Shown: one piece after another, positions 42,224 to 64,000 of the stretch | How positions within the stretch are numbered: the first letter of the stretch is position 1 | How the letters are laid out: the number at the start of each line of letters is the position of its first letter | Assembly: GCF_018688315.1 (NCBI RefSeq) | Contig: NZ_CP061315.1 | Location: 248,001-312,000, forward strand | Direction: 5' to 3' | Source of the DNA: Polynucleobacter sp. AP-Kolm-20A-A1 | GTDB taxonomy: Bacteria; Pseudomonadota; Gammaproteobacteria; Burkholderiales; Burkholderiaceae | Length of the DNA stretch: 64,000 nt | Position numbers and translations under genes: made by a program | Notes under the pieces: generated by a model | The model's input: only the letters and a program-made list of their open reading frames with translations | The model's database searches: none | Told to the model about the DNA's origin: nothing

Positions 42224-43003
42224 CTATAGTTGGTTTAGTTGTTCAAAAGCTTGAGAGAGCTTTGAATAGCGCTCTTGTAGTATTGAAGCATAAAACGCTT
42301 TACCAAATTCGGGGCCTCCTCTTTCAATGTTATGGGTTCCCATAGGCATTCGGCCGATAACTTCGATCCAATACTCCGGATAGGTCTCTATTGAGAATTC
42401 GGCTGCAATTTTAGGGGGGCAAGTATGAAAATTTGGATCTCTTGAGCCCCAGTAGCCAAAAAAGACATCTTCCATAAAGCTAGTTTGGGTAATGTCACCT
42501 TTTTTCCGATAGAGAAGATCAATAGTGCTAGCAAGTTTGCGCAAGCAGAAGCCGCCATTGCCAACATAAAACCGTTTGCGGTTAATTTTTATTCGATAAC
42601 GGTTAAATAAGAAGCGATATTGAACTATTCCGTAGCGCCAGGGAGCTCCGTAATAGTCGTAATTCAGGTCGCAAAAGTGGTCAATTCGGTTTTCAAATAA
42701 GAAGGCATCAAGCTGGTAGATGAATAACCACTCATACCTGGGATAAAAGGTTTCATAGAAGGCGGGGTCCAGTAAAAAATCGTTATAGGTTTGAACGCTT
42801 AAAAAATGATTTTTGGGAAAGCGCTCCATACTCAGCTCTGGCCAAAGTTCAGTATAAAAACTGGTATCTAAGCCCTCTGGGCACATTAAGGTGACGTTTT
42901 GAACATCCAGAAGTCGCAACTGCATCAGGGAGTAGGCCTCGGTTTTACTAGGCCTCTCTTTGTAGACTGGGACGACAGTGACGCAGGAATGGGTTTTAGT
43001 CAT
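42224..43003 (-). CDS. DUF5672 family protein, glycosyltransferase-like
   Basis: A 259-residue protein of the DUF5672 type: VVPVYKERPSKTEAYSLMQ at the start, QTYNDFLLDPAFYETFYPRYEWLFIYQLDAFLFEN around residue 73-107, DYYGAPWR, and VGNGGFCLRK, then EDVFFGYW. The YQLDAF and GNGGFxLR blocks recall GT-A glycosyltransferases (a DxD-like Asp and an acceptor loop). The function of the family is not established. It is divergent from manC and leads into the GDP-fucose genes. Confidence 0.85.
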   Translation of the reverse strand: MTKTHSCVTVVPVYKERPSKTEAYSLMQLRLLDVQNVTLMCPEGLDTSFYTELWPELSMERFPKNHFLSVQTYNDFLLDPAFYETFYPRYEWLFIYQLDAFLFENRIDHFCDLNYDYYGAPWRYGIVQYRFLFNRYRIKINRKRFYVGNGGFCLRKLASTIDLLYRKKGDITQTSFMEDVFFGYWGSRDPNFHTCPPKIAAEFSIETYPEYWIEVIGRMPMGTHNIERGGPEFGKAFYASILQERYSKLSQAFEQLNQL

Positions 43004-48898: not shown

Positions 48899-49990
48899 TT
48901 AAGGCCGAATGTTCTGGGCCTTAGAAATTTGCGCCTTCCAATAGCGCATCATTAACTTTTCGGTATTGACTGATTTGCTTGCTACGGACGTCAGCGCTTT
49001 TTTAAGAAATGCAGCATTGATTTCACCCCAGTCGTTAACAGCAATAACCGGCAAATCCTCAAATAGGTCATTCAGTTTTGCGGCCTTCACAATTGGAATG
49101 CAGCCTAATAGCAAGGCCTCCCAAGTGCGATGACAATCAAGCCCGGCTCCATGTGGGGACAAGACAAACTGGTATTGCGCCTGGGATACCCAGGTTTGGT
49201 CTACGGGTAAAGGCTCTGGTTGAAAGAAGCATGCTGAATGATCGATTTGTTCGTAACAAACTTTACGATCAGCGCGATCAATCGAAAAATGCCAATTGCA
49301 AAAAATCTTCGGAATGCGTTGTGCAATAGGCGGTGCATTTTGTGCAATGGTTTGTATTTGCAACTCTTGAAGGGTGGGCAAAATAAATCCACCGCCCCAT
49401 TGCAGAGGGTTGCTCCATAGGTTGTGAAGATTAATACCGATAGGTAGTGAATAGAGTTTGGGGTGATCTAAGTCTCGATTTTGCGCGAACCAGGAAAGTA
49501 GAAGAGGGTTTTGCAGTAATGCCTCTAGACTGCCATTCAGGCTGACATTGTTGATAGGTAAGTCACTGTCGCCACTAACCAATACAAAGGGAATTTTGAT
49601 CTTTAGAAGAATGTTTTGCACAAAGTAATCAATACCATCACTTGGCACATAAATACTCGGAGCTCGGTTAATGCTCTGAAATTCAAAATCGTTTAATTTC
49701 GCAGCAATTCCATTTAAGTAAGGCGTATTGGCAATACTTGATTCTGGGTTTTTGGGGTGGACATCGCAAGAAAACAGAATGGAGCGACTATTAACCAACT
49801 GGGCATTAGCAATGGCATAGTCAAAGTTGTCAGCTAGTAAAATTTTAGTAGCGATCTTCCTTCGGTCATGACGTTGCAAAAAACGACCTAAAAATCGATA
49901 AAGTGGTCTGTGGAGCATGGTGAATAGCCTGGGTTTTGTATGTGACGCTAAATTGAACCTATTTTCACTTATAGCGGCTTGAAGATTCAA
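48899..49990 (-). CDS. Exostosin-like (GT47-type) glycosyltransferase
   Basis: A 363-residue protein with a GT47/exostosin-type C-terminal block: FVLSPHGAGLDCHRTWEALLLGCIPIVKAAKLNDLF...VIAVNDWGEI around residues 283-330. The N-terminal half is less conserved. It is on the minus strand, inside the otherwise plus-strand locus, and is convergent with FkbM (2 bases apart). Exostosin-like bacterial proteins generally act in capsule or O-antigen synthesis. Acceptor and donor are unknown. Confidence 0.65.
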   Translation of the reverse strand: MNLQAAISENRFNLASHTKPRLFTMLHRPLYRFLGRFLQRHDRRKIATKILLADNFDYAIANAQLVNSRSILFSCDVHPKNPESSIANTPYLNGIAAKLNDFEFQSINRAPSIYVPSDGIDYFVQNILLKIKIPFVLVSGDSDLPINNVSLNGSLEALLQNPLLLSWFAQNRDLDHPKLYSLPIGINLHNLWSNPLQWGGGFILPTLQELQIQTIAQNAPPIAQRIPKIFCNWHFSIDRADRKVCYEQIDHSACFFQPEPLPVDQTWVSQAQYQFVLSPHGAGLDCHRTWEALLLGCIPIVKAAKLNDLFEDLPVIAVNDWGEINAAFLKKALTSVASKSVNTEKLMMRYWKAQISKAQNIRP

Positions 49991-50179: not shown

Positions 50180-50953
50180 ATGAAGGCTGTAATATTAGCT
50201 GGGGGTCTTGGAACCCGTATTGCAGAAGAAACATCTTCTCGTCCTAAGCCAATGGTGGAGGTAGGGGGTAAGCCTATTTTATGGCACATCATGAAGATGT
50301 ATTCGGCCCACGGTGTTAATGAGTTCGTCATCTGCTGTGGTTATAAGGGCTACATGATCAAGGAGTATTTTGCGAACTACTTCTTGCATATGTCGGACGT
50401 TACCTTTGATATGGCAAATAATAATGTCATGCAAATTCACCAGCAGTACGCTGAACCATGGAAAATCACCTTAATTGATACCGGCGAAAACACCTTAACT
50501 GGTGGTCGGCTTAAGCGTGTACGCCAATATCTTGGTAGTGAGGATTTTTGCTTTACCTACGGCGATGGTGTAGGTGACGTAGATCTTACTAAGCTTATTG
50601 CCTTTCATAAGGCGCATGGTAAACAAGCTACAGTTACCGCAGTTCAGCCTCCAGGTCGATTTGGAGCGCTGGACATGGATGGCACTTCAGTGAAAAGCTT
50701 TATAGAAAAACCCCATGGCGATGGCATGTACATTAATGGCGGATTTTTTGTACTATCACCTAAGGTAATTGATTTAATAGAAGATGACAGCACAATCTGG
50801 GAGCGTAAGCCCTTGGAATCATTGGCAACCTCTGGTCAGTTGCAAGCCTTTACTCACAATGGCTTTTGGCAGCCTATGGATACATTGCGCGACAAGCAAC
50901 ATCTTGAAGAGTTGTGGTCAGGCGGTAAAGCGCCATGGAAGATGTGGGCGTAA
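50180..50953 (+). CDS. rfbF: Glucose-1-phosphate cytidylyltransferase
   Basis: Makes CDP-glucose from CTP and glucose-1-phosphate, the entry of the CDP-3,6-dideoxyhexose pathway. The 257-residue protein has [22 protein letters not shown] at the start, then [29 protein letters not shown], and [16 protein letters not shown]. It is the first gene of a long coupled run; the rfbG start overlaps its end by 19 bases. Family and substrate are well supported. Confidence 0.96.
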
Positions 50954-52059
50954 GCGTGCTTAATCCACGCGCATTGAAAGGCGCAGCTGTTGATCCATCT
51001 TTTTGGATGGGGAAACGTGTATTTTTAACAGGACATACTGGATTTAAAGGAGGGTGGCTTGCGCTATGGCTTGCCTCCATAGGGGCCAAAGTCACTGGTT
51101 ACGCGTTGACTCCAAATACTAACCCTAATTTTTACGAGGTTGCTAAAGTTGCGGGCGATCTCGAACAATCTCATATTGCTGATATTCGTGATTTAGATAG
51201 GCTAAAACAAACAATGGCTGAAGCTAGGCCAGAGATTGTCATTCATATGGCAGCACAACCTCTGGTTCGCTACTCGTATTTAAATCCAGTGGAAACTTAT
51301 GCCACCAATGTCATGGGAACGGTTCATATCCTTGAATCTATCCGAAATTTAGATTGTGTGCGCGCTGTAGTAGTGGTAACTACAGACAAGTGTTACGAAA
51401 ATAAAGAATGGTCATGGGGCTATCGCGAAAATGAGCCAATGGGTGGACATGATCCCTACAGCAACAGCAAAGGCTGCGCTGAGTTAGTTACCAGCGCTTA
51501 TCGCCAATCATATTTTTCTCCGGAAAAATACGCTCAACATCAGGTGGCCATCGCTTCAGCACGTGCTGGCAATGTTATCGGCGGAGGTGATTGGTCTGAG
51601 GATCGTTTAATTCCAGATGCAATTAAAGCTTTTGAGACGCAACAATCCTTGATGATTCGCAACCCTTTAGCTACTCGTCCTTGGCAGCATGTCTTAGAGC
51701 CATTATCTGGTTATTTGATATTGGCTCAGGCGCTTTATCAAGAGGGAGCCAAGTTTGATGGGGGCTGGAATTTTGGCCCGCGCGACGAGGATGCTAGGGC
51801 GGTCCAAGAAGTTATTGATTTATTGATTAAAAATTGGCCATCAGCAGCCAGTTGGACTCAAGATCAAAGCGAGCAGCCTCATGAGGCACATTCTCTAAAG
51901 CTTGATTGTTCAAAAGCGCGCCAATATCTCAATTGGGTGCCGAGATGGAATTTAGAGCAGGCAATCAAAAATATTACACAGTGGCATGAAGCACAGCATC
52001 AGAAAAGCAATATGCATGAGATGAGCTTAATGCAAATTGCCGCTTATCAAAACTCTTAA
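50935..52059 (+). CDS. rfbG: CDP-glucose 4,6-dehydratase
   Basis: Converts CDP-glucose to CDP-4-keto-6-deoxyglucose. The 374-residue SDR has the [27 protein letters not shown]-terminus, specific for this family, then [36 protein letters not shown] (Tyr/Lys), [12 protein letters not shown] and [17 protein letters not shown] 50935 overlaps rfbF by 19 bases. rfbH follows after 20 bases. Recognition is firm. Confidence 0.96.
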
Positions 52060-52079
52060 TTTTTTAAACAGATAAAAAT

Positions 52080-53423
52080 ATGACCGAAACCTCTATCTCA
52101 GTTGATCAGTTCGCAAAAGACAAAATTCGCAAGCAAATTTTGGAATTGGTCAAAGAGTATTCCGCTTTAGAATTTGCACCCAAAAAATTTATACCAGGGC
52201 AAACGGCCGTACCTCCGTCGGGTAAGTTGATAGATTCTAGAGAGTTGGAAAATATGGTCGAGGCATCTTTGGATGGATGGCTTACCACTGGCCGCTTTAA
52301 TGACCTATTTGAAAAAAAGCTTGCTGAATTTATTGGGGTAAAACATCTCATCACTGTGAATTCAGGCTCCTCTGCAAATTTAGTGGCCTTCTCGACATTG
52401 ACATCTTCTAAGTTGGGCGATCGCGCCATTAAAAAGGGCGACGAAGTAATTGGCGTTGCTGCTGGCTTTCCAACTACGGTAAATCCGATTGTGCAGTTTG
52501 GTGCAGTGCCTGTTTTTGTGGATGTGGATCCAATCACTCACAATATTGATGCCTCTAAAATTGAAGCGGCAATTAGCCCAAAAACCAAGGCAATTATGTT
52601 GGCCCACTCTTTGGGTAATCCGTTTAACTTAGACGTTGTTACAGCAATCTGCAAGAAGCACAGCCTTTGGTTGGTTGAGGATTGCTGTGATGCTCTGGGT
52701 ACGACATACAAAGGAAAGATGGTTGGTACCTTTGGCGATATTGGTACGCTGAGTTTTTATCCGGCCCACCACATTACTATGGGTGAGGGCGGAGCAGTAT
52801 TTACAAATAATTACGAGCTTAAGCAAATTGCAGAAAGTTTTAGGGACTGGGGCCGTGATTGTTATTGCCCCCCAGGAAAAGACAATACATGCGGCAAACG
52901 TTTTGCCTGGCAGTTGGGCGACTTGCCTTTTGGATACGATCATAAATATACATATAGTCACTTGGGGTACAACCTAAAGATTACTGATATGCAGGCAGCC
53001 TGCGCTCTCGCTCAGCTAGAAAAAGCGCCTGCATTTATTCAGGCACGAAAAGATAACTTTAAGTTTTTAAAAGAGCGACTCGCCACTTGTGAAGAGTTTT
53101 TACAATTACCTCAGGCAACAGAAGACTCAGACCCCTCTTGGTTTGGTTTTCCAATCACATTAAAAGAAGGTTGTCCTGTATCTCGCGTGGATCTCACAAC
53201 CTATTTGGATCAAAATAAGATTGGAACAAGATTGCTATTTGCTGGTAACTTAGTTCGCCAGCCATATATGAAGGATGCGCAGTACCGCATTAGTGGCGAA
53301 CTTAAGAATACCGATAATGTAATGAATAATACTTTTTGGATTGGTGTGCAGCCAGCTTTGACTAAAGAAATGTTGGAATACGCTGCCACTCAAATTGAAG
53401 CATTCCTGGGCGTTAATTTTTAA
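52080..53423 (+). CDS. rfbH: CDP-4-keto-6-deoxyglucose 3-dehydratase (E1)
   Basis: A PMP- and [2Fe-2S]-dependent enzyme that removes the C3 hydroxyl of CDP-4-keto-6-deoxyglucose. The 447-residue aminotransferase-fold protein has His230 in [14 protein letters not shown] in place of the PLP lysine, the hallmark of E1. The iron-sulfur cysteines lie in [20 protein letters not shown] (Cys261, 263, 271). The NSGSSANL pocket is near residue 94. The E3 reductase that normally recycles it was not found in this window. It ends with a one-base overlap with the next gene. Confidence 0.96.
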
Positions 53424-54130
53424 TGACTGAGGGTCGTAAGAAATTACTTTTGTTTGGCGGATCTGGTCAGATTGCCCAGGAAGTTGCTGCTAAATTTGGT
53501 GATAAGAATTGGGATGTTTGTACGGTGGCGCGGACTCCAAGTATTGCCCATCCTAGCGCAATCATCTGGGATGTTATGGCTGGAAATAATCTTCCAGGCA
53601 GTCTAGGGTTGAGAGCCCCGTTTGATGCAGTCTGCTGGGCACAGGGCGCCAATTTAAATGACAGCATTTATGAGTTTAATAAAACCAGTCATCAAATACT
53701 TTACGAGGCAAATGTACTTTTTATTCTGGAGTCTTTGAGTCAACTGTTGAGGGCTGAAGTATTGGTGGAGTCGGCGAAACTTTGTATTGTTAGTTCAATT
53801 TGGCAAGAAATTTCCAGGCAAAACAAGTTGAGCTATGCAATCTCTAAATCGGCATTAAGAGGCTTAGTTTTATCCTTAGCCAATGATTTGGCTGAGGATG
53901 GTTATTTGGTGAATGCAGTTTTGCCGGGCGCCTTAGATACCCCAATGACTCGTAGCAACTTGTCAGAGCAGCAAATACGCTCAATTGAAGGCGCTACAAA
54001 GTTTAATAAATTAGCCACACTGGGAGATGTTGCCTCCACTATATTTTTTCTATGTTCAGAAGAAAACAGTGGAGTTACTGGACAGTTTTTAAAAGTAGAT
54101 TTAGGGTTTTCCGATGTCCGTAATATTTAA
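53423..54130 (+). CDS. Short-chain dehydrogenase/reductase in the CDP-sugar operon
   Basis: A 235-residue SDR: the N-terminal LLFGGSGQIAQEVAAKFG replaces the TGxxxGxG loop, and the catalytic set is Ser in IVSSIW with SYAISKSALRGL (Tyr/Lys of YxxxK). The C-terminus, NAVLPGALDTPMT with SGVTGQFLKVDLGFS, is typical. It starts at a TAATG overlap with rfbH and overlaps the next gene by 17 bases. It may reduce the keto or acetyl group of a CDP-sugar, as required in yersiniose synthesis, but the substrate is not known. Confidence 0.8.
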   Translation: MTEGRKKLLLFGGSGQIAQEVAAKFGDKNWDVCTVARTPSIAHPSAIIWDVMAGNNLPGSLGLRAPFDAVCWAQGANLNDSIYEFNKTSHQILYEANVLFILESLSQLLRAEVLVESAKLCIVSSIWQEISRQNKLSYAISKSALRGLVLSLANDLAEDGYLVNAVLPGALDTPMTRSNLSEQQIRSIEGATKFNKLATLGDVASTIFFLCSEENSGVTGQFLKVDLGFSDVRNI

Positions 54131-55196
54131 AGTCGAGGCAAGCTCTGGTCCTTATCAGGTTCAAATTGGGGCTAATCTGCAAATAACATCTGAAAGAGAG
54201 AATTCTTTTTCAATTGCTGATGAGCTCGTTTTTAATTTATGGAAAGACATTATTCCTACAGATGCATTTACAGTTCTGGCGGTCGAGCAAAATAAAACAC
54301 TAGAAACTAGTTCGAAAATAATTGAGGCAATGAGGTCAAAAGGTGTTCAAAGGGGATCGCATTTAAAGGCCTTTGGCGGTGGAATAATTCAGGATTTAGC
54401 TACTGTTACATCTTCGTTATACATGAGGGGCATTGGTTGGACTTATTACCCCACAACCTTACTTGGAATGGTCGACTCATGTATCGGGGGGAAATCCTCA
54501 ATTAATGTGGGGCGCTATAAAAATATCGCAGGTAATTTTTACCCTCCCCAAGAAATTATTATTGATGTTGAATTTTGTAAAACATTATCCACCCCCGAGC
54601 AGGTAGCAGGCTTATGCGAAGCTGTAAAAATTTGCTATGCTGCAAAAAATGATAGTTTTGACCAATATGTTAAAAACTTTTTAGATCTTCCATTGCCATT
54701 TTCAAGTGAGCAATTATTGAGGTTAGTCGAATTAAGTTTGCTAACAAAAAAAACCTTTATCGAAGAGGATGAGTTCGATAATGGGGTGCGGCTATTGCTT
54801 AATTTCGGACATACTATTGGCCACGCAATTGAAGCTGCAACTCATTTTTCTATAACGCATGGTGTTGCTATAGGCATTGGGATGTTGGCTGAGATTCGTA
54901 TGGGTATGCTTTTGAGTGGCCTCAATGAATTGCCTGAACGCGCAAAGCTATTGGATTTATATATTCGACGTCTGTTAAAGAATATCCCCTATATGGTGAA
55001 TACAATTCGCAATCTTGATGTAAGCACGGCATTTGAGGCATTTAAATCAGATAAAAAACATACTGATCAATCTTATGTAATTGTCGTATTGGATAATCGA
55101 GGATATTTAAAGCGAGTCTCTATCCCGGTATCAGAGGATATCAACCGGATTACTCTTGAAATTTTTGAATGGGTAAAGAAGGATTTTTTACTATGA
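54114..55196 (+). CDS. 3-dehydroquinate synthase-like cyclase
   Basis: A 360-residue protein of the AroB/sugar-phosphate cyclase superfamily. It has FGGGIIQDLATVTSSLYMRGI, WTYYPTTLLGMVDSCIGGKSSINVG and YKNIAGNFYPP (Lys and Asn of the substrate pocket), and the metal ligands Glu in GLCEAVKI, His in LLNFGHTIGHAIEA and His in ITHGVAIGIGM. The GGKSSIN and lack of the DHQS GGKTAVN text suggest a divergent group. It probably cyclises a sugar phosphate to a carbocycle. Starts inside the SDR gene. It may not be the housekeeping AroB, given its context. Confidence 0.8.
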   Translation: MSVIFKVEASSGPYQVQIGANLQITSERENSFSIADELVFNLWKDIIPTDAFTVLAVEQNKTLETSSKIIEAMRSKGVQRGSHLKAFGGGIIQDLATVTSSLYMRGIGWTYYPTTLLGMVDSCIGGKSSINVGRYKNIAGNFYPPQEIIIDVEFCKTLSTPEQVAGLCEAVKICYAAKNDSFDQYVKNFLDLPLPFSSEQLLRLVELSLLTKKTFIEEDEFDNGVRLLLNFGHTIGHAIEAATHFSITHGVAIGIGMLAEIRMGMLLSGLNELPERAKLLDLYIRRLLKNIPYMVNTIRNLDVSTAFEAFKSDKKHTDQSYVIVVLDNRGYLKRVSIPVSEDINRITLEIFEWVKKDFLL

Positions 55197-56959
55197 AGTA
55201 CAGCGATTTAATAGCCGATTGGCTTGTAGACTTGGGGTACACCCATTGCTTCACTGTTGGCGGTGGAAACATTATGCATTTGACGGAAAGCTTGAGTCGA
55301 AAAATGAAAATGGTTGCCGTAGTTAATGAGGTTGCCGCTGGAATTGCCGCTGAATACTTCAATGAAACATCTAAAAATGGTAAAGCTTTTGCCCTAGTGA
55401 CTGCTGGACCTGGGTTGACTAATATAGTGACTGCAATGGCAGGGGCATATTTAGAGAGTAGGGAGCTTTTGGTTATTGGGGGTCAGGCTAAAACTTTAGA
55501 TCTGGCAAGAGGGCTTTTACGTCAGCGTGGAATTCAGGAGATTGATGGCGTTTCTATAGCGAAGCCAATTACAGTTTGCTCGAGGTTAATGGATGATGTA
55601 TTGAGTGCTGATGAATTTGCAGACCTTGTGATGATTGGACGTAGCGGTAGAAAAGGACCAGTGTTTCTGGAAATTCCACTGGATATTCAGGCAAGGCAAG
55701 TGGAGCAAGCTGGTGTCAGCCGTCGATTTATTGAGAGTGACTCCAGTTCGATATCAAAAGTCCCTTATGTGGTAACTGAGCAGCTGGCGGTCAAATTTAA
55801 TGAAGCTAGTCGCCCTGTAATTCTATTGGGTGGTGGCGTTTCTCGTGAGGTTGCCAGAGAGCTGAGGTCTGATTTAGCAGCTCTGGGTTGTCCTGTGATG
55901 ACAACGTGGAATGCTGCCGATCGCATGGCTGCGGATGAGTTGAATTATCTTGGTCGTCCTAATACCTGGGGACAACGTTCTTCAAATATGATTTTGCAGC
56001 AAGCTGATTTTGCATTGATCATTGGTTCTCGTCTGGGCTTACAGCAAACAGGATTTAATTGGCAGCAATTTGTACCCAAGGGGTTTGTAGTCCAGATAGA
56101 TCTTGATAGGGCCGAATTAGAAAAAGGGCATCCTAAGGTTGATATGCCAATACTGGGTGACGCAAACCAGTTTTTAGTTGATTTTTTAAATCAAAAACTT
56201 TCTCCAAAATTGGATTGGCTTAATTATGCAAAAAAAATTCGCAAAGCCATTCCCCTGTCTGAAGCAATTAACAAGCCTAGGGATGAATATATCTCGCCAT
56301 TTGATTTGGTTAAAAGCCTATCAAGGCTATGTAATGCCGAAGATGTAATCGTTCCATGCAGTAGCGGTAGCGCTTTTACTTCAATGATGCAGGTGTTTGA
56401 GCAAAAATCCGGTCAAACTATTATTACCAACAAAGGACTGGCATCTATGGGGTACGGATTATCCGGGGCCATAGGCGCAGCATTCTCTAGCCCCAACAAG
56501 CGCGTGGTTTTGGTAGAGGGGGACGGAGGCTTCTCTCAGAACCTCCAGGAAATTGGGACTGTGGCAATCAATGCGCTGAATATAAAAATGTTTATATTAG
56601 ACGACTCGGGGTACGCCTCGATTCGCATGACGCAAAAAAACTATTTTGGTGGTCGTTATGTAGGTTGCGATCGCGAAACAGGTCTTGGTTTGCCAATTTG
56701 GGATAAATTATTTCAGGCATGGGGAGTGCAGGTGATGAGGCTTGAGCCCGGCTATGAATCAACGCCCGAGTTTCTTGCTGCGCTCTCAAGTGGTGACCCA
56801 TATGCTTTTATTGTTTCCATTGATCCTGAGCAAACTTATTTTCCAAAAATATCAAGTCGGGTAACTGCAAGTGGAGCAATGGAATCGAATCCATTGCATT
56901 TAATGACTCCTGATCTTACGCCAGAAGAAACAACTTTGTACTTGAAGTACCTTGTTTAA
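55193..56959 (+). CDS. Thiamine-diphosphate-dependent carboligase (acetolactate synthase-like)
   Basis: A 588-residue ThDP enzyme with three domains. The catalytic Glu46 is in VVNEVAAGIAAEYF; TAGPGLTNIVTAMAGAYLES follows; the central domain runs to about 340; the Mg-ThDP motif begins GDGGFSQN at 443. The motif usually ends in Asn-Asn, here Asp470-Asp471 (ILDDSGYASIR). ATG 55193 overlaps the cyclase stop as ATGA; the longer frame from 55169 is unlikely. Next to rfbFGH it resembles YerE of yersiniose synthesis, which adds a two-carbon unit from pyruvate to C4 of a CDP-sugar. That substrate is inferred. Confidence 0.85.
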   Translation: MKYSDLIADWLVDLGYTHCFTVGGGNIMHLTESLSRKMKMVAVVNEVAAGIAAEYFNETSKNGKAFALVTAGPGLTNIVTAMAGAYLESRELLVIGGQAKTLDLARGLLRQRGIQEIDGVSIAKPITVCSRLMDDVLSADEFADLVMIGRSGRKGPVFLEIPLDIQARQVEQAGVSRRFIESDSSSISKVPYVVTEQLAVKFNEASRPVILLGGGVSREVARELRSDLAALGCPVMTTWNAADRMAADELNYLGRPNTWGQRSSNMILQQADFALIIGSRLGLQQTGFNWQQFVPKGFVVQIDLDRAELEKGHPKVDMPILGDANQFLVDFLNQKLSPKLDWLNYAKKIRKAIPLSEAINKPRDEYISPFDLVKSLSRLCNAEDVIVPCSSGSAFTSMMQVFEQKSGQTIITNKGLASMGYGLSGAIGAAFSSPNKRVVLVEGDGGFSQNLQEIGTVAINALNIKMFILDDSGYASIRMTQKNYFGGRYVGCDRETGLGLPIWDKLFQAWGVQVMRLEPGYESTPEFLAALSSGDPYAFIVSIDPEQTYFPKISSRVTASGAMESNPLHLMTPDLTPEETTLYLKYLV

Positions 56960-57003
56960 ATTTCTTGCAAAAAATAATTGGATTTTCTAAATAGGAACTA
57001 AAA

Positions 57004-58092
57004 ATGAATAACGAAATATTTAATGATTTATTTGTACTTGAAATGGCGAGCAACCATCAGGGGAGTGTTGATCGTGGGTTGGCAATTATTGATCGCTTCT
57101 CTAAAGTAGTTCGATTTAACAATATGCGTGCTGCAATTAAATTGCAGTTCAGAGACATTGATAATTTTATTCACAAAGACTTTATTGATCGCGAAGATAT
57201 TCGTTATGTCAAAAGACTATCTGATACAAAAATGTCTAAAGAGGATTTTTCACGACTCGTGGATGCCATACGTCAAAGTGGTTGCATTCCAATGTCCACC
57301 CCTTTTGATGAAAAATCAGTTGATTGGTGCATTGAGTTTGACATGCCCATTATTAAAGTTGCAAGCGCGGATAACAATGATTGGACATTACTGGAGAAAA
57401 TTGCACACACCCGTAGGCCGGTAATTATCTCTACTGGTGGTATGACTCAAAAAGATATGGATGATGTGGTCACATTTTTTAAACATCGTGCTATACCGTT
57501 GGCATTAAATCATTGCATTGCAGCCTATCCTCATGAAGACAATGAGTGCGAATTAAATCAAATTGATTATCTAAAGCACCGCTATCCAGATGTAGTGATT
57601 GGATACTCTTGCCATGAGTATCACGACTGGACTGCATCTATGTATATAGCCTACGGTAAGGGCGTTAGAACATTTGAGCGCCATATAGATATCAACGACG
57701 ATGGTTTTAAGGTAGCAACCTACTCTTCGTTGCCAGATCAAATTGATACTTGGTTTAAAGCCTGGCATAAGGCCGTTGAGATGTGTGGAACATCCTCAAA
57801 CCAGAGGCGTAATTTTATTGATCGAGAGATAGCATATTTAGACTCATATGTTCGCGGTGTTTATGCTAAAAGGGATTTAGTTGCTGGGCAAACTCTGACT
57901 GAGGATGACTACTATATGGCCATTCCTTTGCAAAAAGGGCAAATTTCCAGTCGTGAGTTGATGCTTGGAAAATTTGGGCACAAGCTTCTGAATTCATGCA
58001 GCAAAGATCAACCAATTACTATAGAAATTTTAGATACTCCATATTCGGGAAATGAAGAGTTACTAAAGTCATTCAGGAATAGAGGACTCTGA
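57004..58092 (+). CDS. NeuB family sialic acid synthase-like protein
   Basis: A 362-residue protein of the NeuB family, which condenses phosphoenolpyruvate with a sugar aldehyde. It has EMASNHQGSVDRGLAIID at the start, FKxQ-like AAIKLQFRD, STPFDEKSVDW, IIKVASADNNDWTLLEKIA, ISTGGMTQKDMDD and IGYSCHEYHDWTASMYIAY with VRTFERHIDINDDGFKV. The C-terminal ~70 residues form a SAF domain (VYAKRDLVAGQTLTEDDYYMAIPLQKGQ). AGGA lies 7 bases before ATG. No neuA-type CMP-transferase or neuC is adjacent, so it may not make sialic acid. Confidence 0.85.
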   Translation: MNNEIFNDLFVLEMASNHQGSVDRGLAIIDRFSKVVRFNNMRAAIKLQFRDIDNFIHKDFIDREDIRYVKRLSDTKMSKEDFSRLVDAIRQSGCIPMSTPFDEKSVDWCIEFDMPIIKVASADNNDWTLLEKIAHTRRPVIISTGGMTQKDMDDVVTFFKHRAIPLALNHCIAAYPHEDNECELNQIDYLKHRYPDVVIGYSCHEYHDWTASMYIAYGKGVRTFERHIDINDDGFKVATYSSLPDQIDTWFKAWHKAVEMCGTSSNQRRNFIDREIAYLDSYVRGVYAKRDLVAGQTLTEDDYYMAIPLQKGQISSRELMLGKFGHKLLNSCSKDQPITIEILDTPYSGNEELLKSFRNRGL

Positions 58093-58110
58093 GTATAGGG
58101 CGGTAATTTT

Positions 58111-59079
58111 ATGGCATCATTATTAATTATTGGAGGGTCTGGATTTTTTGGAAAATCCTTTCTTGACGCATATGTGCGGGGGAAGCTAAATCTTTGGAAG
58201 ATTGATAGCATTGGAGTGCTTTCTAGACATGCTGAGCAACTTAAATTACAGTATCCAGAACTCATTAATGAATCAATAAAACTCATTAACAGTGATATTG
58301 CAACATGCCAGGATCTTCCTTTTGCAGATTATGTGATTCATGCTGCCGCCTCTACTGATGCGGCAAATTATCTTATGAGACCCAAAGAGGAAAAATGGAA
58401 TATACAAGCTGGTACACATAACTACTGTGCCTTGGCAAATAAATTTCATCTAAATAGTCGAATTCTTTATTGTAGTTCTGGTGCTGTTTATGGTCAGCAA
58501 CCGATGGATGTGGAATATCTATCGGAGGAATTTGATCATGGGTATGTAGATGAAATGTCGATTACCAAGCGAGATTATGCGATGGCAAAGCGTGATTCCG
58601 AAAAATCAATTCAGGCTCTAGGTTCTCAAGGGGGTGCGGTGAGCATAGCTCGCTGCTTTGCTTTTGTTGGTAAATACCTGCCAAGAGACCAGCACTTTGC
58701 AATTGGTAATTTTATAGAGGATGGATTAAAGGGGCGTTCGATTGAAGTTAGATCGAATCATTTGGTCTATCGGAGTTATATGTATGCAGATGACCTTGTT
58801 CATTGGCTTATGACAATTTGTCATTCTGCCAGTACCCATTGCCCCATTTATAACGTAGGCTCAGATCAGGCCATAACCATTAGCGATCTCGCTATGGTGG
58901 TTGCACAAAGATTTTCTGTGCACATCAATAAAATGGAAATAAGTCGAAATATCGTAGATCGTTATATACCGTCTATCAGCAAAGCAAGGGATCAACTGGG
59001 CCTTAGCTTGTCAACTGATATTGCGGGCGCAATTGATAAAACTATTGCGGCATTACGTTTTGATAACCTAAATGCATAA
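58111..59079 (+). CDS. NAD-dependent epimerase/dehydratase family protein
   Basis: A 322-residue extended SDR with the nucleotide loop LLIIGGSGFFGKSFLDAYV, the CSSGAVYGQQP catalytic Ser and the RDYAMAKRDSEK Tyr/Lys pair. VYRSYMYADDLVHWL and YNVGSDQAITISDLA follow. It belongs to the NDP-sugar epimerase group but not clearly to a named one. It lies 18 bases after the NeuB-like gene and overlaps GtrA by 8 bases. It may finish the sugar made by the enzymes upstream. Confidence 0.8.
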   Translation: MASLLIIGGSGFFGKSFLDAYVRGKLNLWKIDSIGVLSRHAEQLKLQYPELINESIKLINSDIATCQDLPFADYVIHAAASTDAANYLMRPKEEKWNIQAGTHNYCALANKFHLNSRILYCSSGAVYGQQPMDVEYLSEEFDHGYVDEMSITKRDYAMAKRDSEKSIQALGSQGGAVSIARCFAFVGKYLPRDQHFAIGNFIEDGLKGRSIEVRSNHLVYRSYMYADDLVHWLMTICHSASTHCPIYNVGSDQAITISDLAMVVAQRFSVHINKMEISRNIVDRYIPSISKARDQLGLSLSTDIAGAIDKTIAALRFDNLNA

Positions 59080-59475: not shown

Positions 59476-60414
59476 ATGGAAAATAAGACGCTAATAAGCA
59501 TTACCTCCCCTTGTTTTAATGAGGGTGAAAATATTGAAGAGCTCTATAAGCGCGTTGTCAAAGTTATGGAGATATTTCCAGAATACGATTTTGAATATAT
59601 ATTTATTGATAATGCATCTACCGATCAAACGGTAGAAATATTACGAGGACTCGCAAGGAAAGATCCTCGCATAAAAATTATTGTTAACACTAGAAATTTT
59701 GGGCACATTCGTTCGCCATATTGGGGAATTATTAGCACAAAGGGATCTGCAACCATATATTTAGCCTCGGATCTTCAGGATCCACCTGAATTAATAGCTG
59801 AATTTATTTCACAGTGGCAGTTGGGGTTTAAAATTGTTCTAGCTGTCAAGCCCGTGACATCAGCAAATCCAATAATGCATTATTTTCGAAGAATCTACTA
59901 CAGGTTGCTTGATAAAATTTCTGAAGTATCGATTACAAAAGATGCAACTGGATTTGGCCTATACGATAAAGTGGTTCTAGATCACATACGCGAAATCAAT
60001 GATCCATACCCTTTTTTGCGGGGTCTAATATGTGAGCTAGGGTATAAAATTAAGACAGTTCCCTTTAACCAACCTAGACGTCTTAAGGGAATATCAAAAA
60101 ATAATTTCTATAGCCTATTTGATATTGCTTTGCTTGGAATAGTTAGCCATTCCATGGTTCCAATCAGAGTTGCTTCAATGCTAGGATTTCTAGTTGCATT
60201 TATAAGTATTTTATCTGCATTTATTCTTTTTTTAGCAAAGATATTTTTTTGGGAAAGTTTTCCAGTGGGTTATGCTCCAGCAGGCATTGGTATTCTACTG
60301 ATGTTTGGCATTCTATTATTTTTTATTGGAATGGTGGGGGAGTATGTGGGGGTAATTCATAATCATGTGCAAAGACACCCAATAGTTGTTGAAAAAGAAA
60401 GAATAAATTTCTAA
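59476..60414 (+). CDS. GtrB-like polyprenyl-phosphate glycosyltransferase (GT2)
   Basis: A 312-residue GT2 with SITSPCFNEGENIEELYKRV at the start, then FIDNASTDQTVEIL, INTRNFGH-like VNTRNFGHI, LASDLQDPPELI (metal DxD), and RGLICELGYKIK. Two C-terminal transmembrane helices (about 230-260 and 270-300) match the dolichol-phosphate mannosyltransferase/GtrB topology. It should load a sugar onto undecaprenyl phosphate. It starts 11 bases after gtrA; the following genes are much more AT-rich. Confidence 0.87.
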   Translation: MENKTLISITSPCFNEGENIEELYKRVVKVMEIFPEYDFEYIFIDNASTDQTVEILRGLARKDPRIKIIVNTRNFGHIRSPYWGIISTKGSATIYLASDLQDPPELIAEFISQWQLGFKIVLAVKPVTSANPIMHYFRRIYYRLLDKISEVSITKDATGFGLYDKVVLDHIREINDPYPFLRGLICELGYKIKTVPFNQPRRLKGISKNNFYSLFDIALLGIVSHSMVPIRVASMLGFLVAFISILSAFILFLAKIFFWESFPVGYAPAGIGILLMFGILLFFIGMVGEYVGVIHNHVQRHPIVVEKERINF

Positions 60415-60416
60415 AT

Positions 60417-61661
60417 ATGAAATATAAAGAATTATTCATATTTAGATTATCAATAGCATGCTCATTAATATTTTTTGGGTACACAGCATTTTTTTATATA
60501 CAAAATTCTTATTTACCTCCCCCATTCGTATTTCATAAATTTGATAGTTTTATGGATTTCTATAATGTAATGCATTGGGCAAAACAAGATGGAATATATG
60601 CTGAATGGGGGTCAGTATACCCACCATTAAATTTTCTAATTATGCAATTATTAGAAAATTTATTTAACCTTGTAAATATTGGTAGTGGAAGTGTAGAGTT
60701 AAGACAAATAACTGGTTATAAAATATTATATTTGATACTTATATTTTATATCTCAATTGGAATGGCAGTAAAAATAAGTTGCAAAAAAAATAATGAAAAT
60801 GATAGATTTATATACTTCTTCATAATAGCAATATTCAGTGCACCCTTTTTATTCGCTATAGAGCGTGGTAATTTAATTATATTATGCTTGCCATTTTTAA
60901 GTATTTACGCATATTCGAATTCTCAGTTGCTAAAGGCAATGAGCCTAGCTTTTCTTATAAATTTAAAGCCATATTTTATAATAGTATTTATAATTGATTT
61001 TTTTAGTAAAAATAAAAAAAATAACGATATTATATTATTATCATCATTTTCTTTATTGATATTAATTATAAGTGGATTAATTCTGGATCAAGAATATTAC
61101 TTTCTTCCAATAAATTTACTGGGTTTCGCTTCAGTTGGTTCAACATTAAATCCTGAAGATATCTTAGCTTTACCTATATCTTTGCTAGCTTTTAAATATA
61201 TTCAAAATGATATATATGGATATAGCATTATTAGGTTTTTGGGGCATATTTCTATGCTTGCCATATATTTTTTAATATTTAAATCAATTATTATTAATAA
61301 AAATAATAATCAAAAAGAGAAATATACATTAATATTATCGATAATTATCTTAACAAACTTTTCTGTGAGTACCGGAGGTTACGGCGCGCTTTATTATATT
61401 TGCATATTGCCGATATTATATAAGGAAAAGTTATTTTTTATATTTAATGTAATAATATTATTTATATTAAATGGAATTTGGGATTTAATATCAATATATA
61501 ATTTTAAATATGAATATATGAATGTATATTTATCTAATGAATATTTAAATATTCCCCAAAGTATTACGCTGGGAACAATTATTAGGCCCATCGCTAATTT
61601 TATGGTCCTAGTGTTATTTTATCAAAATATAAAAGAAGCCAGCCATGTCAAAAATATTTAA
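60417..61661 (+). CDS. Multi-helix membrane protein, GT87-like
   Basis: A 414-residue integral membrane protein with about nine helices. The first long loop carries DFYNVMHWAKQDGIYAEWGSVYPPLNFLIMQLLE, of the GT87 YPP type; AIERGNLIILCLPFLSIYAYS follows. Base and codon use turn sharply AT-rich here. It lies 2 bases after the GtrB-like gene, so it probably is the acceptor-specific transferase (GtrC role) or one of them. No exact family assigned. Confidence 0.6.
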   Translation: MKYKELFIFRLSIACSLIFFGYTAFFYIQNSYLPPPFVFHKFDSFMDFYNVMHWAKQDGIYAEWGSVYPPLNFLIMQLLENLFNLVNIGSGSVELRQITGYKILYLILIFYISIGMAVKISCKKNNENDRFIYFFIIAIFSAPFLFAIERGNLIILCLPFLSIYAYSNSQLLKAMSLAFLINLKPYFIIVFIIDFFSKNKKNNDIILLSSFSLLILIISGLILDQEYYFLPINLLGFASVGSTLNPEDILALPISLLAFKYIQNDIYGYSIIRFLGHISMLAIYFLIFKSIIINKNNNQKEKYTLILSIIILTNFSVSTGGYGALYYICILPILYKEKLFFIFNVIILFILNGIWDLISIYNFKYEYMNVYLSNEYLNIPQSITLGTIIRPIANFMVLVLFYQNIKEASHVKNI

Positions 61662-62262
61662 TATTAGTATTAAGCAAATTATTATAATATTAATCATTTC
61701 TTCTCCCATGGGTTATTATTTATACTCACAGGAAGTTGAAAAAATAATTTACGAGATTAATGTTGAAGGCGGCACTATTATTTCAAAGAATTTATGCGGA
61801 GACATTCGTGAAATAAATGGCTTAATTGTTACTCAACCACGAGCTAACGACCATATTTCTAAAGTCATAAGCGGCATATATGCTGAATATCCTAATAAAG
61901 AAGCCGCAGGGAAGGTGGGTTATGACTCTGGCAAAAATGAATATAAAATAGTTTTTAAAGCAAAATATAGCGATAGAGAGATTTTAGCAAGCGAGGGAAG
62001 AAAAATTATTCGCTACATACTTGATTTGGAGAATAAGATATATGAAAAATACTATAGGAATATAAAGCTAAATTGTGCGCATGGGGCTTACCAAGCATTT
62101 TCTTATATCCCTTTGGATACAAATTCTATAAGTTATTTTACGAGTCGTAGACATGACAAATGGCATGCATATGTATTATTAATTTCACCACTCATAATAA
62201 TTTATTTACTAATTATAGTAATTAGAAGGATAAAGGCGGTAGAAAATAATAAAAATGCATAA
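61645..62262 (+). CDS. Unrecognised membrane protein with terminal helices
   Basis: A 205-residue protein with one hydrophobic helix near each end (about 10-28 and 170-190) and a ~140-residue domain between them, probably periplasmic. Two cysteines (about 51 and 148) may form a disulfide. This two-helix layout recalls polysaccharide chain-length regulators such as Wzz, but I see no Wzz sequence motifs. It overlaps both neighbours (17 and 8 bases), so it belongs to the same operon. The function is unknown. Confidence 0.6.
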   Translation: MSKIFNISIKQIIIILIISSPMGYYLYSQEVEKIIYEINVEGGTIISKNLCGDIREINGLIVTQPRANDHISKVISGIYAEYPNKEAAGKVGYDSGKNEYKIVFKAKYSDREILASEGRKIIRYILDLENKIYEKYYRNIKLNCAHGAYQAFSYIPLDTNSISYFTSRRHDKWHAYVLLISPLIIIYLLIIVIRRIKAVENNKNA

Positions 62263-63925
62263 AATTAATACTTATTTAACAAATAATTTTAATTTTTCAA
62301 AAAGTAAAATAAGATTATTATTCGCATTAAAAATATTAATAATAATATTTGCGATTTATTCTGCCTCTAAGTTACCTATTTATCCCGATGAAGTAGCTTA
62401 CAAGATTTTCCTTGAAAGATTTTTCATAAATGGTGGATTTAAACAGTCTCTTACCCCGTACTGTACTTCTGGGTTCATGATCCGCCCTGCAGCCTTTTTA
62501 TGGCCCGCAGCTATTGCATGGTCGTCTTTAGCATTCTTTGGGGAGGGGTGGGCTTCATATAGGTTGTTACCTCTATTGCTACTACTCACGGTTCTAATTT
62601 ATTTAGCTTTTGTTAACTATAAGGCTTGTGGATCGATACCTTGGGCTTCAATTTTATTGGTGGGAATATCGCCATGGCTTTATGGATTATTGATATTAAG
62701 ACCTGAAATTTTCCTTTTAGCACTTGGATTACTTATATATATATTATGTTTAAAGATAAATAAAACGTTTAATAAATATTTATTAATATTTTTGCCTATA
62801 ATAGTTATATTCATTTATAGTCTAATATTATATATTCATCCAAAGGCACTCTATTTCCTGCCATTAATTTTATATGGGATATTATTGGGTGCATTAAATA
62901 TTAAAGGTAATTTTAAATCATTAATCTATAGCATATTTTTTTGTTTAATTGCAGTGCTATTATCGATATCGGCATTGAATATTCATAAGGAGCAATATTT
63001 AACATGCCCTGAAGTTCCTAGTATTCAAATAACCATGAATAGCCAGGCCTTAAATTTGATGAAAATATTTGAAGATAGAGGTGATTTTTTAAAGCAGGTA
63101 AATAAATTATTTGGCCCTGAAATTACTGAAAGAACTTTATCACAGTTTAATTTTAAAAAAAATTATGATATTGGATACTTACCTTCAAAGCCATTCATTG
63201 AGAATATTGATAAAATAATGAATTTTAGTAATAAAATTGTAATTCTATTAGAATTGCTAATATTAATATTATCAGTTATTTTTAGCTTTAAAGTAATGCC
63301 TATAAAAGATTGGATATTAATATTTTTATTTACAATTGGATTATTATCATCAAGTTTTCTTAGCTTTTCTCGTAACTGGTATGATATTTCAATGTTTATG
63401 GGTTCAATATTGGTATCCACAGCATTATACTATTCGCATTGTTATAATTTTTTAATAAAATATTTCAATAATACATATAAAACTATTTATATGTATTTAA
63501 TAATATTTTGTTCAATTGGTACGATGTATCTAATATCAGTAAATTTTAATAATTCTTTTGATGGTGGATATACTGGTCCTGGCATTCCATTGTCTATTGA
63601 TAAATCAACTCTCAAAACAAGTATTAATGAAATTCTTGATAAATATGATTTAGACATAAGGGATTCAATCATTGTTGATGATCTCACATATGAGTACTTA
63701 AAAAAAAGTAAAAAAGTTTTTCCTGCTAGCTACCTAGGTCTATTATTTGATCAGCCCAATCTTATTAACAATGTTCTTTATACTGAAAAGGTGAAATATG
63801 GAATTGTTCGCTGCAATACTTTTACATATTTGATCTCCTCAATTCCCAGCTTAAATTGGGGGTTAATTGAAATGACTCTGGATAAATCTTCTTTAGAAAA
63901 ATTATGTATATTTTCTACCAAATAA
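62255..63925 (+). CDS. Multi-helix membrane glycosyltransferase, GT-C (GT39-like)
   Basis: A 556-residue protein with around ten helices and a GT-C first loop with LPIYPDEVAYKIFLERFF, where the Asp-Glu pair is the catalytic motif of the ArnT/PMT type. The long periplasmic C-terminal part (about residues 430-556) is soluble. Very AT-rich, like its two predecessors, with many isoleucine ATA codons. It probably transfers a lipid-linked sugar onto a glycan or protein in the periplasm. The last 75 bases of the window after its stop hold nothing recognisable. Confidence 0.6.
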   Translation: MHKINTYLTNNFNFSKSKIRLLFALKILIIIFAIYSASKLPIYPDEVAYKIFLERFFINGGFKQSLTPYCTSGFMIRPAAFLWPAAIAWSSLAFFGEGWASYRLLPLLLLLTVLIYLAFVNYKACGSIPWASILLVGISPWLYGLLILRPEIFLLALGLLIYILCLKINKTFNKYLLIFLPIIVIFIYSLILYIHPKALYFLPLILYGILLGALNIKGNFKSLIYSIFFCLIAVLLSISALNIHKEQYLTCPEVPSIQITMNSQALNLMKIFEDRGDFLKQVNKLFGPEITERTLSQFNFKKNYDIGYLPSKPFIENIDKIMNFSNKIVILLELLILILSVIFSFKVMPIKDWILIFLFTIGLLSSSFLSFSRNWYDISMFMGSILVSTALYYSHCYNFLIKYFNNTYKTIYMYLIIFCSIGTMYLISVNFNNSFDGGYTGPGIPLSIDKSTLKTSINEILDKYDLDIRDSIIVDDLTYEYLKKSKKVFPASYLGLLFDQPNLINNVLYTEKVKYGIVRCNTFTYLISSIPSLNWGLIEMTLDKSSLEKLCIFSTK

Positions 63926-64000
63926 TTTATGAAGATGGTCTTTTTATTGCGTTTTAGATAGACATCTTAATATTCATTTTTAAGCATTAAAAAATAAATA

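What the first reader, a model, noticed from the sequence alone, without database searches (positions are those of the whole stretch)
50180..59079. Coupled CDP-sugar operon that mixes rfbFGH, ThDP carboligase, AroB-like cyclase and NeuB-like synthase
Seen: rfbF, rfbG, rfbH, an SDR, an AroB-like cyclase, a ThDP enzyme, a NeuB-like protein and an epimerase, all on the plus strand. Several starts overlap the previous stop. Established: rfbFGH make CDP-4-keto-3,6-dideoxyglucose, and in Yersinia the ThDP enzyme YerE adds a two-carbon branch to it (yersiniose). Inference: the ThDP enzyme and SDR could make a yersiniose-like branched sugar, but the AroB-like and NeuB-like enzymes are extra and point to an additional, possibly undescribed, sugar. 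This is the best candidate in the window for a new system.
Basis: partly seen in the sequence, partly recalled or inferred. Interest (0 to 1): 0.85.

Follow-up and report, generated by a model that had tools for sequence, protein, structure and literature searches.

The report
Branched-sugar operon with interchangeable arm-building enzymes
A bacterium carries an operon that probably builds a rare surface sugar by making a custom carbon arm and welding it onto a nucleotide-bound sugar; the enzymes that looked out of place are most likely the arm-building part, which other bacteria replace with different enzymes.

Summary
The eight genes are real, in order and operon-like. The genome has a separate AroB and two other TPP enzymes; this NeuB homologue is its only one. 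The ThDP enzyme groups with the YerE-like carboligase JanthE, not with acetolactate synthases. AroB-like and NeuB-like are probably not for a second sugar. Of 30 loci with ThDP plus AroB-like genes, 29 hold exactly one enzyme that can make a 2-keto-3-deoxy acid: HMGL-type aldolase 13, HpcH/HpaI aldolase 12, NeuB-like 4. Two same-genus genomes keep rfbFGH-ThDP-NeuB but have a HAD phosphatase and no AroB-like. Best reading: NeuB-like makes a phosphorylated 2-keto-3-deoxy acid; AroB-like+SDR remove the phosphate by elimination and reduction; the ThDP enzyme decarboxylates the acid and joins it to C4 of CDP-4-keto-3,6-dideoxyglucose. The product would be a long-armed, caryophyllose-like sugar. Linkage and swaps are shown; substrates, step order and product are inferred. 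AroB-like keeps the dehydroquinate-synthase residues, so a carbocyclic arm is not excluded. New variant of a known kind.

The parts
50180..50953 (+). rfbF, glucose-1-phosphate cytidylyltransferase
   Evidence: TIGR02623 469 bits, cut-off 300
50935..52059 (+). rfbG, CDP-glucose 4,6-dehydratase
   Evidence: TIGR02622 522 bits, cut-off 278
52080..53423 (+). rfbH, CDP-4-keto-6-deoxyglucose 3-dehydrase (makes the 3-deoxy 4-ketone acceptor)
   Evidence: NF011936 757 bits, cut-off 423
53423..54130 (+). SDR reductase; proposed to reduce the ketone left after phosphate elimination
   Evidence: PF13561/PF00106; YAISK motif seen in the sequence; window-SDR tblastn hit in 26 of 30 ThDP+AroB-like loci, and three of the other four (L007, L016, L022; not L008) hold an ORF of the same cluster
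54114..55196 (+). AroB-like (dehydroquinate-synthase homologue), proposed phospholyase on the donor acid
55169..56959 (+). YerE-like ThDP carboligase; proposed to decarboxylate the donor acid and add it to C4 of CDP-4-keto-3,6-dideoxyglucose
   Evidence: PF02776/00205/02775; best PDB match 8rph E 2.4e-73; starred branch with JanthE apart from IlvB
57004..58092 (+). NeuB-like PEP-dependent enzyme; proposed maker of the 2-keto-3-deoxy donor acid
   Evidence: PF03102 133 bits; PEP/metal positions kept, N-acylhexosamine positions lost in 9 of 9 proteins aligned
58111..59079 (+). NAD-dependent epimerase/reductase; candidate for reducing the new ketone (YerF-like role, inferred)
   Evidence: PF01370 74 bits
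59072..59464 (+). GtrA-like protein, candidate flippase
   Evidence: PF04138 55 bits
59476..60414 (+). GT2, candidate undecaprenyl-phosphate glycosyltransferase (GtrB-like role, inferred)
   Evidence: PF00535; nearest NCBIfam NF047588 PgfS 176 bits, cut-off 500
60417..61661 (+). hydrophobic protein, candidate membrane glycosyltransferase (by eye)
   Evidence: ORF, no Pfam match
61645..62262 (+). ORF of unknown role in the same run
   Evidence: ORF, no Pfam match
62255..63925 (+). hydrophobic protein, candidate membrane glycosyltransferase (by eye)
   Evidence: ORF, no Pfam match

Best explanation
One pathway, not two. (1) rfbFGH make CDP-4-keto-3,6-dideoxyglucose, the acceptor (named enzymes; established chemistry). 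(2) NeuB-like joins PEP to an aldose phosphate, giving a phosphorylated 2-keto-3-deoxy acid (inferred; erythrose-4-phosphate, hence a C7 acid, is the favoured guess). (3) AroB-like transiently oxidises it and eliminates the phosphate, and the SDR reduces the remaining ketone, leaving a methyl-ended 2-keto-3-deoxy acid (inferred). In two sister clusters a HAD phosphatase would simply hydrolyse the phosphate. (4) The ThDP enzyme decarboxylates this acid and adds the acyl anion to the C4 ketone of the CDP-sugar (family chemistry known for YerE and ErwE; donor inferred). (5) The epimerase/reductase trims the new ketone, and the GT2/GtrA pair loads and flips the sugar for attachment outside (inferred). 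With a C7 donor the arm has six carbons, as in caryophyllose.
For: Aldolase slot: of 30 ThDP+AroB-like loci, 13 have an HMGL-type, 12 an HpcH/HpaI and 4 a NeuB-like enzyme, 1 none (L060, a 6.1-kb contig that begins inside the SDR); none has two. The rule was written down before the contents of 6 further loci were seen: the 4 with ThDP obey it, the other 2 lack ThDP. L002 has the window's order with HpcH where NeuB-like sits. AroB-like and NeuB-like hits share 8 contig lengths, jittered control mean 0.75. Phosphate slot: L074 and L075 (same genus) have rfbFGH-ThDP-HAD-NeuB(84-88%)-epimerase and no AroB-like; relatives of these HAD proteins are absent from 29 of the 30 loci (the exception is L063). 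AroB-like keeps the recalled DHQ-synthase carboxylate-binding positions (K250, R264, N268 equivalents in 38 of 38) yet differs from AroB at nine positions, among them Q93, C123, D222 (38 of 38) against G, S, E (27 of 27). ErwE prefers 4-hydroxy-2-oxo acids (PMC12247030, passages), and ThDP clusters with a 4-hydroxy-2-oxovalerate aldolase exist (L091 over the NCBIfam cut-off; L080 and L092 match it at 389 and 413 bits). Caryophyllose's arm is 1,3,4,5-tetrahydroxyhexyl (PMC5706390, passages), the carbon pattern of a 3,7-dideoxyheptulosonate minus CO2.
Against: No substrate, intermediate or product was tested. In DHQ synthase, phosphate loss is followed by ring closure on the C2 ketone, which would destroy the 2-keto acid; the recalled DHQ-synthase residues are kept here, and NCBI's name for the subfamily says 'cyclizing'. 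Bacterial NeuB enzymes usually take unphosphorylated aldoses (recalled). NeuB-like is not tied to AroB-like: of five sampled genomes with it at E<=1e-90, G017 and G019 lack AroB-like. L063 holds AroB-like, SDR and a HAD protein together. Of 19 further ThDP loci none has AroB-like, none has a relative of those HADs, and 7 show no aldolase; L092 has two. So ThDP and NeuB also occur with no known phosphate-removing step beside them (L079, L084-L089). In 2 of 38 AroB-like proteins the K197 position is changed. The caryophyllose match is by carbon pattern; against DAHP the C4 configuration would have to differ (worked out by hand), and the caryophyllose loci could not be read.
Confidence: 0.57

Rival explanations
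1. AroB-like is a true cyclase. It closes a sugar phosphate or 3-deoxyulosonate phosphate to a carbocycle, the SDR adjusts it, and the ThDP enzyme either opens a cyclic diketone or joins an acyl unit to the CDP-sugar, giving a carbocyclic arm.
Against: DHQ-type closure consumes the 2-keto group that a ThDP decarboxylase needs; it does not explain why a plain HAD phosphatase is found in the AroB-less sister clusters L074 and L075.
Confidence: 0.2
2. Same arm-building module, other order: AroB-like and SDR first turn an aldose phosphate into a terminally deoxygenated aldose, and the aldolase slot then extends it by pyruvate or PEP.
For: NeuB enzymes usually take free aldoses (recalled); a short aldose cannot easily ring-close, so the cyclisation problem does not arise.
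Against: The carboxylate-binding positions K250 and R264 of DHQ synthase (roles recalled) are kept in 38 of 38 AroB-like proteins, which suggests an acid substrate.
Confidence: 0.14
3. One reading: the ThDP enzyme makes a yersiniose-like sugar from pyruvate, while AroB-like and NeuB-like make a second, separate sugar.
For: Pyruvate is YerE's donor (PMC12247030 passages); in L093 and L094 rfbFGH-ThDP occur with no aldolase of the searched types.
Against: ThDP+AroB-like loci carry exactly one 2-keto-acid-making enzyme in 29 of 30; no NeuA-type cytidylyltransferase was recognised in the run to activate a ulosonic acid.
Confidence: 0.09

Closest known systems
Yersiniose A pathway (rfbFGH/AscA-C, YerE, YerF; gene names partly recalled)
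   Same: CDP-4-keto-3,6-dideoxyglucose acceptor genes and a YerE-like ThDP enzyme in one operon
   Different: adds a donor-building set (NeuB-like, AroB-like, SDR) where YerE uses pyruvate
Erwiniose pathway (ErwE, 4-hydroxy-2-oxo-acid donors)
   Same: an aldolase-made 4-hydroxy-2-keto acid is the likely donor; L080, L091 and L092 hold a 4-hydroxy-2-oxovalerate-type aldolase beside ThDP
   Different: the window uses a PEP-dependent NeuB-like enzyme plus AroB-like/SDR instead
Caryophyllose (C12 sugar; MMAR_2332 in Mycobacterium marinum)
   Same: predicted six-carbon, methyl-ended polyhydroxy arm on C4 of a 3,6-dideoxyhexose
   Different: structure not known here; gene content of the caryophyllose loci could not be checked
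TIGR04425 AroB-related putative sugar phosphate phospholyase
   Same: same subfamily by sequence and by gene neighbourhood; the L013 member scores 439.5, above the cut-off
   Different: the window protein scores 278, below the cut-off of 400; no activity known to me
3-dehydroquinate synthase (AroB)
   Same: fold and recalled catalytic residues
   Different: own signature positions; a separate AroB exists in the genome

Membership tests
YerE-like ThDP carboligases | TPP N/M/C domains with catalytic Glu and GDG motif | tested here: met
YerE-like ThDP carboligases | groups with characterised YerE-like enzymes, not with acetolactate synthases | tested here: met
   28 of 32 rows, JanthE among them, in one branch 99/99, both IlvB rows outside; the place of PpYerE is unstarred (87/58), several rows have long branches, and the window's own sub-branch is not joined to JanthE by a starred fork. 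8rph=JanthE inferred from its CDG motif; 5ahk=PpYerE recalled
YerE-like ThDP carboligases | adds an acyl anion to the ketone of a CDP-4-keto-deoxyhexose | not testable with these tools
   needs assay
CDP-4-keto-3,6-dideoxyglucose module | RfbF, RfbG and RfbH above curated cut-offs | tested here: met
CDP-4-keto-3,6-dideoxyglucose module | an E3-type (RfbI/AscD) reductase partner (recalled) | tested here: inconclusive
   none recognised in the run; a 36% homologue of the L002 protein lies at G000:C1:1587882-1588904
3-dehydroquinate synthase AroB | score over the aroB equivalog cut-off | tested here: not met
   239.6 against 305
3-dehydroquinate synthase AroB | catalytic and carboxylate-binding residues (numbering and roles recalled) | tested here: met
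   all kept in the window protein
TIGR04425 phospholyase (cyclizing) | score over cut-off 400 | tested here: not met
   278; neighbourhood homologue L013 439.5
TIGR04425 phospholyase (cyclizing) | phosphate elimination with ring closure | not testable with these tools
   needs assay
N-acetylneuraminate/pseudaminate synthase | score over TIGR03569 or TIGR03586 cut-off | tested here: not met
   111 against 400; 122 against 340
N-acetylneuraminate/pseudaminate synthase | N-acylhexosamine-binding residues (D247, R314 of the meningococcal enzyme; roles recalled) | tested here: not met
   changed in 9 of 9 proteins aligned, as is N184; eight PEP/metal positions kept in 9 of 9
Caryophyllose biosynthesis | makes 4-C-(1,3,4,5-tetrahydroxyhexyl)-3,6-dideoxyhexose | not testable with these tools
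   needs structure of the polysaccharide

The most novel reading that the evidence does not exclude
AroB-like is a dehydroquinate-synthase homologue that no longer closes the ring: it eliminates the phosphate of a DAHP-type 2-keto-3-deoxy acid, and with the SDR gives a methyl-ended ulosonic acid. That acid is a shared currency: a YerE-like enzyme welds it onto CDP-sugars (caryophyllose-type sugars), and in ThDP-free clusters a KdsB-like enzyme may activate it with CTP. Three unrelated enzyme types supply it in different bacteria.
Probability: 0.33. Interest if true: 0.8.

Novelty: new variant of a known kind. Interest (0 to 1): 0.6.

Why it matters
It would give a gene-level route to long-armed branched sugars such as caryophyllose, for which the passages seen here name the ThDP enzyme but no donor pathway. 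It would assign a role to a widespread AroB relative (3057 homologues at E<=1e-40, a count that may include true AroBs) that databases call '3-dehydroquinate synthase'. And it gives a rule for predicting the arm from gene content: aldolase type, and phosphatase versus AroB-like+SDR.

Tried and rejected
Second-sugar reading: disfavoured by the one-aldolase rule and because no NeuA-type gene was recognised in the run. Plain yersiniose: disfavoured by the donor-building genes. Bradyrhizose: PMC4743980 (passages) links it to an 11-gene cluster; the terms rfbF, rfbG, dehydroquinate and acetolactate do not occur in it. Mycobacterium marinum caryophyllose locus: passages of PMC4703794, PMC13354803, PMC5706390, PMC12507525 and PMC12395582, and passages plus section 11 of PMC4403928, give no full gene list, so nothing follows. 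PMC12188165 (JanthE): passages only. PMC7821131: passages only. Plasmid search: 3 weak matches, 32-34% identity; one was used as a PDB query without result for the question. Rfam (gathering) and tRNA scans of the window: none.

Rows dropped: from the ThDP tree 7 of 39 rows (L058, L059, L029, L031 duplicates; L070 partial; L016, L022 where my frame extraction failed); the own IlvB and TPP rows were cut short by the stretch fetched. In one search, 117 of the 120 listed NeuB contig lengths were typed.

In print: nothing linking an AroB-like enzyme to YerE-type pathways was found in searches of an open-licence library; the single hits were not opened. Absence there is not absence in print.
Full report
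Observation. The run goes on through GtrA, a GT2 and three ORFs without Pfam match to 63925. The genome (1.92 Mb, one contig; probably Polynucleobacter, inferred from named homologues) has another AroB at C1:78825 and two other TPP enzymes; the NeuB homologue is single.

ThDP enzyme. Its best solved relative is 8rph (E 2.4e-73), then 5ahk, then E. coli AHAS I. In a 32-row tree the 27 cluster enzymes and 8rph form one branch (99/99) apart from the two IlvB rows; PpYerE's place is unsure, and several rows have long branches. AHAS models score far below their cut-offs. So it is YerE-like by descent; ketone chemistry is inferred.

Neighbourhoods. One genome-contig scan gave 26 loci. Clustering and tblastn show AroB-like, nearly always with the SDR, beside ThDP and usually rfbFGH in Pseudomonadota, Bacillota, Spirochaetota, Chloroflexota, Planctomycetota and Bdellovibrionota (origins as printed) and one phage contig. 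Six of those 26 lack ThDP (L011, L014, L015, L018, L020, L025). The third partner varies: NeuB-like, HpcH/HpaI (PF03328) or HMGL-like (PF00682; nearest NCBIfam 4-hydroxy-2-oxovalerate aldolase), the last two typed on single representatives. Over 30 loci with ThDP and AroB-like the counts are 4, 12 and 13, one with none on a cut contig, none with two. rfbF, rfbG and rfbH pass the script's thresholds in 23, 22 and 20 of 30, some contigs being short. The rule was noted before the contents of six more loci were seen; the four with ThDP obey it. On the ThDP tree the group labels need 7 changes (least possible 3), so the slot has probably been refilled several times.

All three enzyme types can make one product class, a 2-keto-3-deoxy (4-hydroxy) acid (family chemistry, recalled). 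That is the donor class ErwE prefers (PMC12247030, passages). Of 19 further ThDP loci drawn from 398 phylum genomes, NeuB homologues are near 7, HpcH near 2, a 4-hydroxy-2-oxovalerate-type aldolase near 3 (one of these, L092, also has a weak HpcH-type hit) and none of these near 7; none of the 19 has AroB-like. The three with the oxovalerate aldolase look like the erwiniose pathway.

The second swap. G017 and G019, same genus, have NeuB-like at 84 and 88% identity, with rfbFGH, a ThDP gene and the epimerase, but at E<=1e-30 only one AroB match each, at housekeeping level. Between ThDP and NeuB-like they carry a HAD_2 protein, nearest to phosphoglycolate phosphatase models though below their cut-offs. 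Relatives of these HADs are missing from 29 of 30 ThDP+AroB-like loci; L063 is the exception. One flank of the G019 locus has the same antiporter, methyltransferase and sulfite-reductase genes (named by eye) as the right flank of the window's cluster: probably alternative cassettes at one site. A phosphatase and a phosphate-eliminating enzyme in alternative cassettes suggests that both take phosphate off the same kind of intermediate. Against this, L079 and L084-L089 have ThDP and NeuB homologues with neither.

NeuB-like. Eight PEP/metal positions of meningococcal NeuB are kept in 9 of 9 proteins, while N184, D247 and R314 are changed in 9 of 9 (roles recalled): PEP chemistry, but not the usual N-acylhexosamine. 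It is rare: 4 of 200 relatives and 2 of 399 order genomes at E<=1e-90, the own genome counted in both; three of these five genomes have AroB-like beside it (own, G055, G450).

Mechanism. See best explanation. Shown: gene identities, linkage, one-aldolase rule, phosphatase cassette, residue patterns. Inferred: substrates, order of steps, product. The caryophyllose link is by structure: its C4 arm is 1,3,4,5-tetrahydroxyhexyl (PMC5706390, passages), the carbon pattern left when a 3,7-dideoxyheptulosonate loses CO2. The main doubt is ring closure by AroB-like, which would destroy the keto acid.

A second use. Five loci (L011, L014, L015, L018, L020) have AroB-like without ThDP but with a KdsB-like cytidylyltransferase, Gfo/Idh and 2-hydroxyacid dehydrogenase genes; three of the five also show an HpcH/HpaI aldolase, in L011 only a piece at the locus edge. 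This fits a ulosonic acid as AroB-like's realm.

Verdict. The finding is real, and the genes called extra are more likely a modular arm-building pathway feeding a YerE-like enzyme. New variant of a known kind.

Noticed in passing
L064 (IMGVR_UViG_3300042197_001558): A contig with phage genes (phrog_850 at 464 bits, HNH endonuclease) carries rfbH, a nucleotide-sugar epimerase, ThDP, SDR, AroB-like and HpcH aldolase: a phage may carry the branched-sugar module.
   Followed up: partly
L011, L014, L015, L018, L020: AroB-like with KdsB-like cytidylyltransferase, Gfo/Idh and 2-hydroxyacid dehydrogenase genes, no ThDP: possibly a CMP-activated relative of the same acid.
   Followed up: partly
L084-L089: NeuB homologues of 501-525 aa next to YerE-like ThDP genes; the four printed (L085, L086, L088, L089) end in a cupin-like domain (recognised by eye).
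   Followed up: no
L063 3787-12492: ThDP-NeuB-like-SDR-AroB-like followed by an FGGY sugar kinase, a radical SAM/SPASM protein and a HAD protein, without an rfbF, rfbG or rfbH hit on the 20-kb stretch.
   Followed up: no
window 60001-64000: GC falls to 27-28% over the last genes of the run, against 38-49% in the other 2-kb steps of the window.
   Followed up: no
window 42224-43003 and 48899-49990: Two minus-strand genes next to and within the plus-strand sugar genes: DUF5672, and a protein with a sub-threshold RXYLT1_C-like C-terminus.
   Followed up: no
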